Source: Loigolactobacillus coryniformis subsp. coryniformis KCTC 3167 = DSM 20001 (GTDB lineage: Bacteria; Bacillota; Bacilli; Lactobacillales; Lactobacillaceae). From it: 64,000 nucleotides of DNA. The notes below the pieces were generated by a model. The model was not told the origin of the DNA. It ran no database searches and was given only the letters and a program-made list of their open reading frames with translations. Both the position numbers and the translations under genes were made by a program. The stretch covers positions 2,108,001-2,172,000 of the forward strand of contig NZ_CP017713.1 in assembly GCF_002706425.1 (NCBI RefSeq). Reading direction: 5' to 3'. Positions within the stretch are counted from its first letter, which is position 1, and every line of letters starts with the position of its first letter. Positions 2,626 to 30,835 of the stretch are shown here, piece by piece.

Positions 2626-2633
2626 CGAAGAGA

Positions 2634-2744
2634 GTGTGACATAAGGTGCCCAACTTTTGAGCATTAGCCTAGAGCGGCGAATAATTCACTGCGTGAATTA
2701 TTTGACGATCGTAGCTAAGCGGAAAAAGTTGCCTTATGGAACAC
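2634..2744 (+). repeat. 111-nt structured intergenic element, copy 1
   Basis: The segment can fold nearly end to end. Outer arms CATAAGG/CCTTATG and CAACTTTT/AAAAAGTTG are followed by a conserved zone (TTAG/CTAA, CTA/TAG pairing), then a perfect 10-bp inner stem at 2680-2689/2693-2702 with a TGC loop. A second copy of identical length lies at 29071-29181 on the other strand. The blocks TTTTGAGCATTAGCCTAG and CGTAGCTAAGCGGAAAAA are shared exactly, while the outer and inner arms differ in sequence and still pair. That pattern suggests selection on RNA or DNA structure. I do not recognise a named family. Confidence 0.75.
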
Positions 2745-2779
2745 GTTTTAACTATATTATTCGGAAGTGTGAAGAAGGT

Positions 2780-2807
2780 GTTGGACATAAACAACTTATG
2801 TCACAAC
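2780..2807 (+). promoter_or_regulatory. Candidate MarR operator (palindrome)
   Basis: An inverted repeat with arms GACATAA/TTATGTC, extended by GTTG/CAAC with one bulged base, sits 35-62 bp upstream of the MarR start codon. MarR proteins commonly autoregulate through palindromes of this size. TGACATAA also occurs at 2638-2644 in the left arm of the 111-nt element. Assignment to this MarR protein is inference from position. Confidence 0.5.
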
Positions 2808-2841
2808 TCCTAACCTTAATCGTGGAGTAGAGGAGTTAACT

Positions 2842-6286: not shown

Positions 6287-7843
6287 CGTGAAAGTTCAAA
6301 ACCCAGCTAAACCCTGATTGCACTAAGTTATTTTAGCCCAAAATTAAACACAAGCAGCTCCTTGAAGTATACTTGAGTCGTCTAAACCACGATACAAAGG
6401 AGTGCTTGTGCTATGGCTAGTATACCGCAAAATAAAATTGAAAAATCAAGTTTTAAAATAATTACCCAATTTTGTGCCTTGGCGCACCTACCAGCTTTGG
6501 TCCGCTTGCTCAATGATCACCGCCATTCTAACGTTTCACTAACTGCAATCTTGATTTGGTTACTCAAGGTTATTTTCCAGCGGCGGACACTTTACCGAGC
6601 AGAAGCACCAGGCATGTGTACCAAACGCACGGTCTACAATATCTTGAATGACGGTCGGATCAATTGGCAACGGCTTAGTTGTTTATTGGCACAACGGGTG
6701 ATTACTGGCCTAGCACAGTGGCTCGACGCCCGCAAAAGTGGTGCGCTGATCATTGATGACACCCTGATCTCACGACTGAATGCGAAACAAACCGAGCTTT
6801 TAGCCAACACCTTCGATCATGATCGGCAACGCTACTTAAAAGGTTACCGTGGTTTGACCTTGGCTTGGAGTAACGGCCAGCTCGTGTTGCCAGTCACGAC
6901 GGCAGTTTTGTCGTCACAGAAAGCACGTAATCGGGTGGGCACACCAGCTAAAACTTTAGATCAACGCACCTTAGCCGGACAACGGCGGGCCCAAGCGATG
7001 CGGCCAATGCCAGCGGTCGCACTAGAACTGATCAAGCAAGCGCGGGCAAATGGGCTCAAAGCTAAATATGTGCTATTCGATAGTTGGTTTACCTCGCCTA
7101 AAATGTTTGCGGCGTTAAACGACCAAAAGTTGATCGGTATTGGCATGCTTAAACGGACCAAGAAGATCTATTACCGCTATCGTGGCCGCCAATACACCGT
7201 CAAAACGCTCTATCAGTACTTACGTCAGTCGCATCGTCAATCACGAGCCGACTATTTATATAGTTGCGTGGTTCAGGCCGCTACCGCAAAGTTACCGTTA
7301 CGCTTAGTTTTTGTCGCTAAACGCCATTGCGCCAACGACTACCTGGTGTTAGCGACTACAAAAACCAATCTGACCCCGGCAGCGATCATTCAACTTTATA
7401 GTCGCCGTTGGCAGATTGAGAACTATTTTAAGGCCGCCAAACAATATTTACGCCTTGATCAGACTCAGATCCAGGATTATGACGGGCTTTGTGCGCATAT
7501 GGCTGTGACCATGATGACCTATGATCTGTTGGCTTGGCAACAGCGGCGCCAACCAGGCGACCCAACGATTGGCGATATTTTCTATCAATTGGATACCTTA
7601 CTGCCGATCATTGATCTGGCGACTGCAATCGGCCAGTTACTAGGTGAGTTGACTAACCTAAAGGTGACTAAATCACCTGCAAAAATGACTGCGCAGATCA
7701 AGACACTGATTGACCAATTTTTAAATGGCTTATCGATTCAAACTTCGGCGCTGATCACGCTGAGCATGAGCAATAGTTGAAGGTTAATTTTTAGGCTGTA
7801 AAGCTTGGTGGACTAAGGGATTACTCGAATTGGAACTTTCACG
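6287..7843 (+). mobile_element. IS4-family insertion sequence (about 1.56 kb)
   Basis: Terminal inverted repeats CGTGAAAGTTC (6287-6297) and GAACTTTCACG (7833-7843) bracket one transposase gene. I could not find a matching target duplication, so it may be old or have been involved in a deletion. The right flank is the 3' truncated minus-strand frame at 7844-8017, whose continuation is not found beyond the left end, which is consistent with a deletion. Confidence 0.75.
6413..7780 (+). CDS. IS4-family transposase
   Basis: A 455-residue DDE transposase. The first catalytic Asp is in LIIDDT (near residue 117), the second in VLFDSWF, and the Glu is in the IS4 YREK signature YSRRWQIENYFKAAK (Y-2-R-3-E-6-K). 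Start ATG 6413 is preceded by AAAGGAG at 6398-6404. The frame is intact, so the element may be mobile. It is not closely related to the transposase at 8729 beyond the shared family fold. Confidence 0.9.
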   Translation: MASIPQNKIEKSSFKIITQFCALAHLPALVRLLNDHRHSNVSLTAILIWLLKVIFQRRTLYRAEAPGMCTKRTVYNILNDGRINWQRLSCLLAQRVITGLAQWLDARKSGALIIDDTLISRLNAKQTELLANTFDHDRQRYLKGYRGLTLAWSNGQLVLPVTTAVLSSQKARNRVGTPAKTLDQRTLAGQRRAQAMRPMPAVALELIKQARANGLKAKYVLFDSWFTSPKMFAALNDQKLIGIGMLKRTKKIYYRYRGRQYTVKTLYQYLRQSHRQSRADYLYSCVVQAATAKLPLRLVFVAKRHCANDYLVLATTKTNLTPAAIIQLYSRRWQIENYFKAAKQYLRLDQTQIQDYDGLCAHMAVTMMTYDLLAWQQRRQPGDPTIGDIFYQLDTLLPIIDLATAIGQLLGELTNLKVTKSPAKMTAQIKTLIDQFLNGLSIQTSALITLSMSNS

Positions 7844-28768: not shown

Positions 28769-29070
28769 AGTGATCCTTCTTTCAGCTAACTTGTTGGCTT
28801 AATTTTAGCAAATCATTAGCGGCAACGCCTGCGAATCAACTAACAACCACCTAACAAAATTGTAAGCTGGGGAAGAAATGCAATCAGGCTAGTATTTTCA
28901 CGGCTTTTTCATTATACTAGATAAGGTTGAATTTTAATAAGTATCACGATTATGAATAAGAAAGGACGGTTGTCATGTGTGCAGCTGGCTTTTGCCAAAA
29001 TAACCCGCCGATAATACTGAAGTAGACAATTGACTAGAATGTCGCTTTATGGCGATATTTTAGTGGAAAC
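28769..29070. other. Intergenic region with a possible 16-codon leader frame
   Basis: A -10-like TATACT at 28914-28919 on the plus strand is followed by AAAGGA and an ATG at 28975 opening a 16-codon frame (28975-29025, MCAAGFCQNNPPIILK). No family or pausing motif is recognised, and it may be a remnant or chance. Confidence 0.3.
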
Positions 29071-29181
29071 GTGCCAAAAAAGCATGTTTTTCCGCTTAGC
29101 TACGCCAGTCAAACGCATCACTGTGTGCTGCTTATTGCCTGGCTAGGCTAATGCTCAAAACATGAACGCTTTTTTAGGCAC
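29071..29181 (-). repeat. 111-nt structured intergenic element, copy 2
   Basis: This is the same element as 2634-2744 on the opposite strand and of identical length. Outer arms GTGCC/GGCAC and AAAAAAGC/GCTTTTTT differ from copy 1 but pair. The central hairpin is GCATCAC-TGT-GTGCTGC. Conserved blocks AAAACATG-free core TTTTGAGCATTAGCCTAG and CGTAGCTAAGCGGAAAAA are exact. It ends 9 bp before the Shine-Dalgarno of the APC permease, so it would be in the transcript leader if transcription starts upstream. Confidence 0.75.
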
Positions 29182-29200
29182 TCTATTTTAGGAGGTTATC

Positions 29201-30835
29201 ATGGAAAAACTAGAATTAGAAAGTGCTAATCGCAATTATTTAAAATGGCCGGTGGTTGCTTTAATGGATTTTGTCACCGTCATTGGTTTCGACGATATTA
29301 TTTATAATTTTCAGAATCAAGGTCTCGGTGTTGTCACATCTTGGGTCGTTATGCTTTTTATCTATGTCTTACCTTATTCATTGATGGTTGGTCATCTCGG
29401 CTCTGTTTTCAGTTCTGAAGGTGGCGGTTTAACTTCTTGGGTCCGCGGGACTAGCGGCGACAAAGTTGGTTATTTCGCAGCTTGGTTCTATTGGGTCGTT
29501 GGCTTACCGTACATCGTGGATGTCGCTAACTCAGTGGTTATCGCCTTTGGTTGGTTGATCCACGGTAATGGTAACGTTGACGCTTATATGTCTAAAGCCA
29601 TGTTCGGTGTTTTGACTACGATTGTCTTCGTTGGTTTTATCTTCTTTGAGCATTTATTTAAAAATAAATCATTAGCGATCATGAGTGTTATCGGTGGTAG
29701 CGCCATGTTTATCATGACGGTCTTGTTTGTGATCATGACCGTTGTGGCACTGACAACAGGTGGTCACATTGCAACACAACCATTTACACCCAAAGCGTTT
29801 ATCCCTAAAATTGACGGCCATTTCTTTACTACATTAGGGCTGCTTATTTTTGCCATGAACGGTTCGGAATTAGTCGCACCATACGTGACTGATATGAAAA
29901 ACCCACGTAAGGATTTCCCGAAAGCAATGATCATGATTGCAGTGATGACGGCCTTCCTGACTGTCTTCGGCTCCTTCTCATTAGGTGTTTTCTTTAACGC
30001 TCATCACCTACCCGGCGATTTAAAAATGAACGGTTCCTACTATGCGTTCCTCGCTTTAGGCCAGCATTTCGGCTGGGGTAAAATTTTGATGTACATTTTT
30101 GCAGTGACGCAAGCGATCTATATGTGCGCACAACTAGCTGTCTTATTGGACGCCGGTACCCGTGTCTTCCTTGGTGATATCAGTAAGAAATATATGCCGA
30201 AACAATTATCTAAGCTTAACGCTGATGGTTTGCCGATCAACGGTTATTGGATGACTACTGCAATTTGTGCAGTCATCATGTTCTTAGGCGGCTTGCTACC
30301 CGAGATCAACGATATTTTCAACTGGTTATTAAACTTAAACGGTATTGTTTCACCATTCGCAACTTGCTTCTTATTCTGGGCATTTATGATGGTTCGCTTA
30401 CATAGTGACCGTTACCCAACGCCAGCATATAAATATATCAAAAATGATCGATTAGGCTTTAGCGTCGGAGTTTGGATGTTCGTTGTCACCTTTTTCTCCG
30501 CTTTTGCTGCATTCTTCCCAACGGACGCAAAGCCCGGTACTAGTTTATGGACAGATTCATTGATCATGAATATCGTAGTAACAATCGGTCTATGTGCTAT
30601 CGGTTTGATCATGCCAATTATTGCTCGGCGGCAACGCGAAAATGCTGGCAACGCCTTTACTGGCAGTCAGTGGACTCTAAATTTAGTTCTGCTCGTTATC
30701 GCCGTAGCACTTGGTTACTGGATCTCACGCCTACACAGTATTGACGTGCTGATTCGTTTAGTTCTAATTCTGTTAGTGATTGCCCTATTTAGCCTCTGTT
30801 TACGCCTGATTTATCGGCGACCAACTAAGGCATAA
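29201..30835 (+). CDS. APC-family amino acid permease
   Basis: A 544-residue transporter with about 12-13 membrane helices and the APC fold. The first helix region is LMDFVTVIGFDDIIYNFQNQ, and helix 6 is near LLIFAMNGSELVAPYVTDMK. Length and the GSELVAPY region place it near glutamate/GABA-antiporter or YjeM-like subgroups, but the substrate is not determined. AGGAGGTTATC precedes ATG 29201. The 111-nt structured element lies directly upstream. Confidence 0.85.
   Translation: MEKLELESANRNYLKWPVVALMDFVTVIGFDDIIYNFQNQGLGVVTSWVVMLFIYVLPYSLMVGHLGSVFSSEGGGLTSWVRGTSGDKVGYFAAWFYWVVGLPYIVDVANSVVIAFGWLIHGNGNVDAYMSKAMFGVLTTIVFVGFIFFEHLFKNKSLAIMSVIGGSAMFIMTVLFVIMTVVALTTGGHIATQPFTPKAFIPKIDGHFFTTLGLLIFAMNGSELVAPYVTDMKNPRKDFPKAMIMIAVMTAFLTVFGSFSLGVFFNAHHLPGDLKMNGSYYAFLALGQHFGWGKILMYIFAVTQAIYMCAQLAVLLDAGTRVFLGDISKKYMPKQLSKLNADGLPINGYWMTTAICAVIMFLGGLLPEINDIFNWLLNLNGIVSPFATCFLFWAFMMVRLHSDRYPTPAYKYIKNDRLGFSVGVWMFVVTFFSAFAAFFPTDAKPGTSLWTDSLIMNIVVTIGLCAIGLIMPIIARRQRENAGNAFTGSQWTLNLVLLVIAVALGYWISRLHSIDVLIRLVLILLVIALFSLCLRLIYRRPTKA

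What the first reader, a model, noticed from the sequence alone, without database searches (positions are those of the whole stretch)
2634..2744. A 111-nt structured element present twice with covarying arms
Seen directly: this segment and the reverse complement of 29071-29181 have exactly the same length, share the blocks TTTTGAGCATTAGCCTAG and CGTAGCTAAGCGGAAAAA without a mismatch, and fold into the same long hairpin, yet their outer arms (CATAAGG/CCTTATG versus AAAAAAGC/GCTTTTTT) and the arms of the inner hairpin differ while still pairing. Compensatory change in stems around invariant blocks is the mark of a conserved structure. I do not recognise a named RNA or MITE family. It may be a small RNA, a cis-regulator, or a non-autonomous mobile repeat.
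Basis: partly seen in the sequence, partly recalled or inferred. Interest (0 to 1): 0.75.

Follow-up and report, generated by a model that had tools for sequence, protein, structure and literature searches.

The report
Lactobacillales-wide structured hairpin mobile repeat
The two 111-base hairpins are copies of a very abundant family of small, probably mobile DNA repeats spread through lactobacilli and their relatives; their paired arms keep changing together while key internal bases stay fixed, and a related repeat in Enterococcus faecalis appears to have been described before.

Summary
In detail: both segments fold into one long hairpin with fixed internal blocks and different but paired arms. 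They are copies of an interspersed repeat. A covariance model gives 72 hits in this Loigolactobacillus-type genome (about 50-60 distinct places), hits in 119 of 251 Lactobacillaceae genomes (20 of 40 genera) and, more diverged, in five other Lactobacillales families. In 106 copies 93.5% of paired positions still pair (shuffled 67.6%) and 40 of 43 pairs covary. A G-U excess over A-C shows that the GAGTG...CACGTTT strand is the one that folds. No Rfam family matches. Many copies continue into a linker and a second, often terminator-like hairpin; the 5' end usually lies just outside a gene. Sister genomes have empty sites, two of them plain intrinsic terminators. Best reading: a non-autonomous miniature mobile element of the BOX/EFAR type, constrained to keep its single-strand fold, moved by an unknown enzyme; Y1 transposase and reverse transcriptase are missing from several copy-rich genomes. 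An E. faecalis locus matched by the model is a 171-nt two-hairpin unit like the published Efa-1/EFAR repeats. The kind is known; its Lactobacillaceae branch, order-wide spread and covariation appear undescribed in the papers I could search.

The parts
2632..2749 (+). copy 1, main hairpin (GAGTG...CACGTTTT)
   Evidence: R1 match 120.4 bits, E 7e-30; fold z -6.6
2655..2672 (+). invariant 5' block TTTTGAGCATTAGCCTAG (copy 1)
   Evidence: conserved internal-loop columns in 106 copies
2710..2727 (+). invariant 3' block CGTAGCTAAGCGGAAAAA (copy 1)
2750..2774 (+). conserved linker AACTATATTATTCGGAAGTGTGAAG (copy 1)
   Evidence: same position and similar sequence in other own copies and in other genera
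2775..2811 (+). second hairpin AAGGTGTTGGACATAAACAACTTATGTCACAACTCCT (copy 1); its 3' arm is an inverted repeat of the element's left end; no U-run here, so not a good terminator in this copy
29066..29183 (-). copy 2, main hairpin; its 5' end lies 17 nt from the start codon of the divergent ORF 29201-30835; no second hairpin recognised
   Evidence: R1 match 108.7 bits, E 1.4e-26; context; fold

Best explanation
It is a non-autonomous miniature mobile repeat (BOX/EFAR-like) of Lactobacillales. SHOWN: the unit is a ~118-nt hairpin with five helices and fixed purine-rich internal loops; in many copies it is followed by a ~25-nt linker and a second, often terminator-like hairpin. It is repeated dozens of times per genome, keeps its fold by compensatory change on one strand, is absent from orthologous sites in sister species, and usually starts within ~25 nt of a stop codon or ~40 nt of a start codon. 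INFERRED: an enzyme supplied in trans recognises the folded single strand (ssDNA or RNA) through the fixed loops and boundary motifs (AGAGTG / CACGTTT) and inserts it next to genes, at some sites in place of an intrinsic terminator, where the second hairpin can take over termination. Stems vary freely because only pairing and loops matter to the machinery. Old copies are then lost by internal deletion across the hairpin.
For: 72 model hits in the own genome; 119/251 Lactobacillaceae genomes, 20/40 genera; 55/295 Lactobacillales genomes including five other families. Covariation: 93.5% of cells paired versus 67.6 +/- 0.4 shuffled, 40/43 pairs changed on both sides, covariation score 0.691 versus 0.200 shuffled and at most 0.125 when slid. 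G-U 260 versus A-C 60, so one strand is selected. Filled versus empty orthologous sites: nrnA-helicase site filled only in the own genome, empty in four sisters; leuC-leuD site empty in three; sites L102 and L109 are plain terminators in a sister species. Near-identical copies at many sites of one genome, G071. 5'-end abutment: 69% of co-oriented left genes end within 25 nt, versus 10% on the right side. Decay by deletion at the pyrG site and in-place compensatory change at ilvN-ilvC.
Against: No mobilising enzyme was found; Y1 transposase and reverse transcriptase are absent from several copy-rich genomes. Target-site duplication is not consistent: one possible AAATAG(A) repeat at site L105 only. 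Two of the informative empty sites (L105, L110) hold no hairpin. Some insertions are old and shared by several species (groESL, ilvN-ilvC), so selection for a host function at those sites is not excluded.
Confidence: 0.74

Rival explanations
1. A host-retained RNA element of 3' untranslated regions: the hairpin right after the stop codon plus terminator protects or tunes mRNA, and is copied to many genes because it is useful.
For: Sense-strand fold selection; 55 of 96 classified single copies follow a co-oriented gene, 69% of these within 25 nt of the stop codon; terminator hairpins downstream in 16/29 convergent sites; conserved in place at ilvN-ilvC and groESL for several species.
Against: 41 of 96 single copies lie antisense upstream of a gene start, 12 of these between divergent genes; orthologous genes in sister species do without it; no shared gene function at the sites was apparent.
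Confidence: 0.15
2. A REP/REPIN-type element moved by a RAYT (Y1 HUH transposase), which cuts hairpin ssDNA.
For: Hairpin with fixed mismatches, inverted pairs (L117/L118, pyrG) and tandem arrays resemble REP/BIME clusters.
Against: Y1_Tnp (PF01797) is absent from G000, G007, G006, G071, G121, G184, G138, G219, G236, G091, G393 and G368, all with many copies; the element is several times longer than a REP.
Confidence: 0.04
3. A retro-element: the folded RNA is copied by a reverse transcriptase.
For: RNA-like G-U tolerance; the own genome holds about 20 RVT_1 matches, mostly group II intron-like by size.
Against: No RVT_1 match in G071, G121, G184, G138, G219, G268 or G091, which are rich in copies; no tail or 5' truncation pattern was seen.
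Confidence: 0.03
4. Pairing is kept by a DNA process alone (template switching in long palindromes) without selection on the fold.
For: The outer stem shows no strand preference: in its 14 pairs G-U about equals A-C; stems change fast and jointly at one locus (ilvN-ilvC).
Against: Fixed asymmetric internal loops and a bulge persist in 106 copies, and the inner helices show a strong G-U excess on one strand, which palindrome correction would not give.
Confidence: 0.04

Closest known systems
Efa-1 / EFAR repeats of Enterococcus faecalis
   Same: Intergenic, ~163-170 bp, two adjacent stem-loops (Efa-1: 163 bp, 65 copies, pair of adjacent SLSs, PMC2267715). A locus on an E. faecalis record (NZ_CP143580.1, nhaC-pcp) matches the model end to end (39 bits, E 1.1e-9) and is a 171-nt two-hairpin unit. 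From memory only, the 2007 EFAR paper (Venditti et al.) reports variable module assembly and insertion at sites able to form stem-loops; here some empty sites are terminators.
   Different: The published EFAR/Efa-1 sequences could not be read, so identity is inferred from size, shape and host. The Lactobacillaceae form has its own fixed blocks GAGCATTAGCC...GTAGCTAAGCGGAA, and some of its insertions had no target hairpin.
BOX elements of Streptococcus pneumoniae / S. suis (PMC3049150)
   Same: Modular, dispersed, intergenic, strong fold when transcribed, variable inner modules between fixed ends, judged parasitic by the authors.
   Different: No sequence comparison with BOX was made; BOX is built of boxA/B/C modules, and whether any BOX module is related is open.
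REP / BIME / REPIN with RAYT
   Same: Hairpins with conserved mismatches, near stop codons, in inverted pairs and arrays.
   Different: Much longer unit; no Y1 transposase in most copy-rich genomes.
ERIC and other stem-loop MITEs
   Same: Long intergenic hairpin of ~110-130 bp without coding capacity.
   Different: No sequence relation tested; different phylum; ERIC is a single hairpin (PMC2267715).

Membership tests
Efa-1/EFAR repeats | two adjacent stem-loops in a ~163-170 bp intergenic unit | tested here: met
   E. faecalis locus L300:1985-2155, 171 nt, two hairpins; window copy 1, 2632-2811, folds the same way. Copy 2 lacks the second hairpin.
Efa-1/EFAR repeats | sequence/structure homology to the E. 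faecalis family | tested here: inconclusive
Efa-1/EFAR repeats | insertion at sites able to form a stem-loop (recalled from the 2007 abstract) | tested here: inconclusive
   Empty sites L102 and L109 are intrinsic terminators; L101 has a weak hairpin (z -1.3); L105 and L110 have none.
Efa-1/EFAR repeats | length variation by modular assembly (recalled) | tested here: met
   Variants with inserted modules: L008, L011, L012, L019, L028, L063, L075, L087.
REP/RAYT | associated Y1 (RAYT) transposase in the host | tested here: not met
   PF01797 absent from 12 of the 14 copy-rich genomes tested.
classical TIR MITE | terminal inverted repeats matching an IS and a fixed-length target-site duplication | tested here: inconclusive
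   Left end and end of hairpin 2 are inverted repeats in Loigolactobacillus copies; no IS with these ends was sought exhaustively; only one possible duplication.
Rfam RNA family | match above gathering score | tested here: not met
   No match for the element in the window or in further loci with copies.
BOX element | boxA/boxB/boxC sequence modules | not tested
   No BOX sequence was fetched for comparison.

The most novel reading that the evidence does not exclude
The fold itself is the transposition substrate: an order-wide family of two-hairpin elements moved as single strands by an enzyme class other than Y1 transposases or reverse transcriptases, preferentially replacing intrinsic terminators and carrying its own.
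Probability: 0.2. Interest if true: 0.8.

Novelty: new member of a known kind. Interest (0 to 1): 0.56.

Why it matters
These repeats occur by the dozen in genomes of food and probiotic bacteria, sit at the edges of housekeeping genes (groES-groEL, ilvN-ilvC, leuC-leuD, pyrG), and are unannotated in the records seen. They form a large natural set of covarying hairpins in bacteria, could alter 3' ends and operon read-through, and pose a clear open question: what moves them, given that the usual single-strand enzymes are missing from copy-rich genomes.

Tried and rejected
Rfam at gathering and at lax thresholds: only weak unrelated hits. A MarR-gene search of genome contigs found nothing. Phage records: no match. 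Literature searches for the motif letters, Loigolactobacillus repeats, LOOT RNA and EFAR found no description of this family; an apparent letter match in an L. pentosus CRISPR table (TTAGCTACG) was coincidence. Integron attC sites were considered (hairpin, after stop codons, arrays with fixed spacers), but the R-box motif GTTRRRY is absent by eye; not tested further. A resemblance to BOX letters recalled from memory was not tested. The idea that the second hairpin is always part of the element was dropped: downstream terminators depend on gene context (16/29 convergent sites, 1/29 '--' sites), although in some genomes it clearly travels with the element. The idea of a long autonomous copy was looked at only through BLAST half-matches in the own genome, which showed none with a coding insert.

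Full report
CHECK OF THE OBSERVATION. The two segments are as described: equal length, two blocks shared without mismatch, different outer and inner arms that pair. Both fold into one long hairpin far more stable than shuffled sequence (z -6.6 and -4.8).

IT IS A LARGE FAMILY. BLAST of copy 1 against the own genome gave 32 matches. Alignment of 26 copies from several genomes gave 43 consensus pairs, 35 of them with changes on both sides. A covariance model (R1) gives 72 hits in the own genome; some are the reverse reading of the same palindrome, so the number of distinct places is roughly 50-60 (my count). Named carriers include Loigolactobacillus binensis and zhaoyuanensis, Pediococcus ethanolidurans and Lapidilactobacillus and a Latilactobacillus curvatus plasmid. 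Across the order 55 of 295 genomes match, including five other families, where the ends and stem 1 (GAGTG...AAAAGGCG.TTAG / CTGCCTTTT..CACGTTTA) are kept and the middle differs. The genome is therefore a Loigolactobacillus or a close relative (inference and kinship).

STRUCTURE UNDER SELECTION. In 106 distinct copies 93.5% of cells pair (shuffles 67.6 +/- 0.4; slid controls 35-43%), 40 of 43 pairs carry double changes, and the covariation score is 0.691 against 0.200. That alignment was fitted to the model, which leans towards the structure, and related copies inflate counts; but the margin is very large and the MAFFT-only alignment A2 agrees. G-U pairs outnumber A-C 260 to 60; the excess lies in the inner helices, while the outer stem is neutral. 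So the GAGTG...CACGTTT strand folds, as RNA or as single-stranded DNA. Fixed unpaired positions include GA before and GGA/GCA after the TTAGC helix, a bulged A, and GTTT at the 3' end.

ANATOMY BEYOND THE HAIRPIN. In many copies a linker resembling CTATAnnnTTCGGAnnnCAAA follows, then a second hairpin. In Loigolactobacillus the 3' arm of that hairpin (CTTATGTCACAACTCCT) is an inverted repeat of the left end (GAGTGTGACATAAG). Copy 1 of the window has it (2775-2811) without a U-run; copy 2 does not. Longer variants carry extra modules (such as GACGTTGACCATTCTTGTGGCAAAAATCTTGCCGCAAGAAACATGGC) inside the hairpin. In other genera head-to-tail arrays occur in which every unit has different stems but the ~10-nt spacers are nearly identical; inverted pairs also occur.

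CONTEXT. With a crude ORF caller, 98 single copies were placed. The 5' end abuts genes: 69% of 55 co-oriented left genes end within 25 nt, and 49% of 41 divergent left genes start within 40 nt; on the right side the figures are 10% and 5%. Orientations are mixed (29 convergent, 26 ++, 29 --, 12 divergent). Terminator-like hairpins follow within 135 nt in 16/29 convergent sites but in 1/29 of '--' sites (background rate 13%).

MOBILITY. Orthologous sites were compared among eight genomes of the genus. The nrnA-helicase site is filled only in the own genome and empty in four sisters. leuC-leuD is filled in some and empty in three. ilvN-ilvC and groES-groEL copies are shared by several species; at ilvN-ilvC stem 1 differs by several compensatory pairs between orthologous copies (GACAAAGGGC/GCCCTTTGG versus GACGGTAAGC/GCTTACCGG). 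At pyrG an inverted pair seems to have decayed differently in each species by deletion inside the hairpin. Sites L102 and L109 are ordinary intrinsic terminators in a sister species; L101 has a weak hairpin; L105 and L110 have none. In G071 many copies are nearly identical, which suggests recent spread. Gene names here are mine, from reading the translated flanks, not from annotation.

WHAT MOVES IT. Unknown. Y1_Tnp is absent from 12 of 14 copy-rich genomes tested and RVT_1 from 7 of them, so a resident RAYT or reverse transcriptase is not a general explanation. How the element moves, and whether as RNA or DNA, is inference.

RELATION TO KNOWN KINDS. E. faecalis Efa-1 (163 bp, 65 copies, pair of adjacent stem-loops; PMC2267715) and, from memory, EFAR (Venditti et al. 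2007) are the closest. An element between nhaC and pcp on an E. faecalis record matches R1 end to end (39 bits, E 1.1e-9 for 4 kb, filters off) and is a 171-nt two-hairpin unit. The default whole-record search did not report it, so the link is remote. BOX elements (PMC3049150) share modularity and parasitic character but were not compared by sequence. I therefore file it as a new, very widespread member of the EFAR/BOX kind of miniature structured repeats, not as a proven EFAR.

LIMITS.

Noticed in passing
L192, L194, L195, L206, L097: Head-to-tail arrays of 2-4 hairpin units whose ~10-nt spacers (e.g. TTTAAAAGAA) are nearly identical while all stems differ; how such arrays form is unexplained.
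   Followed up: partly
L008, L011, L019, L028, L053, L075, L087, L123: Longer variants with a shared inner module ending GACGTTGACCATTCTTGTGGC...GCCGCAAGAAACATGGC, conserved across species; function unknown.
   Followed up: partly
L107; groES-groEL region in eight genomes of the genus: A copy sits antisense between groES and groEL and is kept, in varying decay, in at least four species; one species (G005) has an empty site.
   Followed up: yes
G000 whole genome, e.g. G000:C1:154946-155569: At least 13 near-identical 469-aa reverse transcriptase ORFs (group II intron-like by size) in the own genome.
   Followed up: no
window 6413-7780: ORF of 455 aa that looks like an IS4-type transposase (by eye).
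   Followed up: no
L271, L272: Enterococcus and Lactococcus plasmids carry related hairpins (about 110 plasmid records), with no annotated feature under the matches listed.
   Followed up: partly
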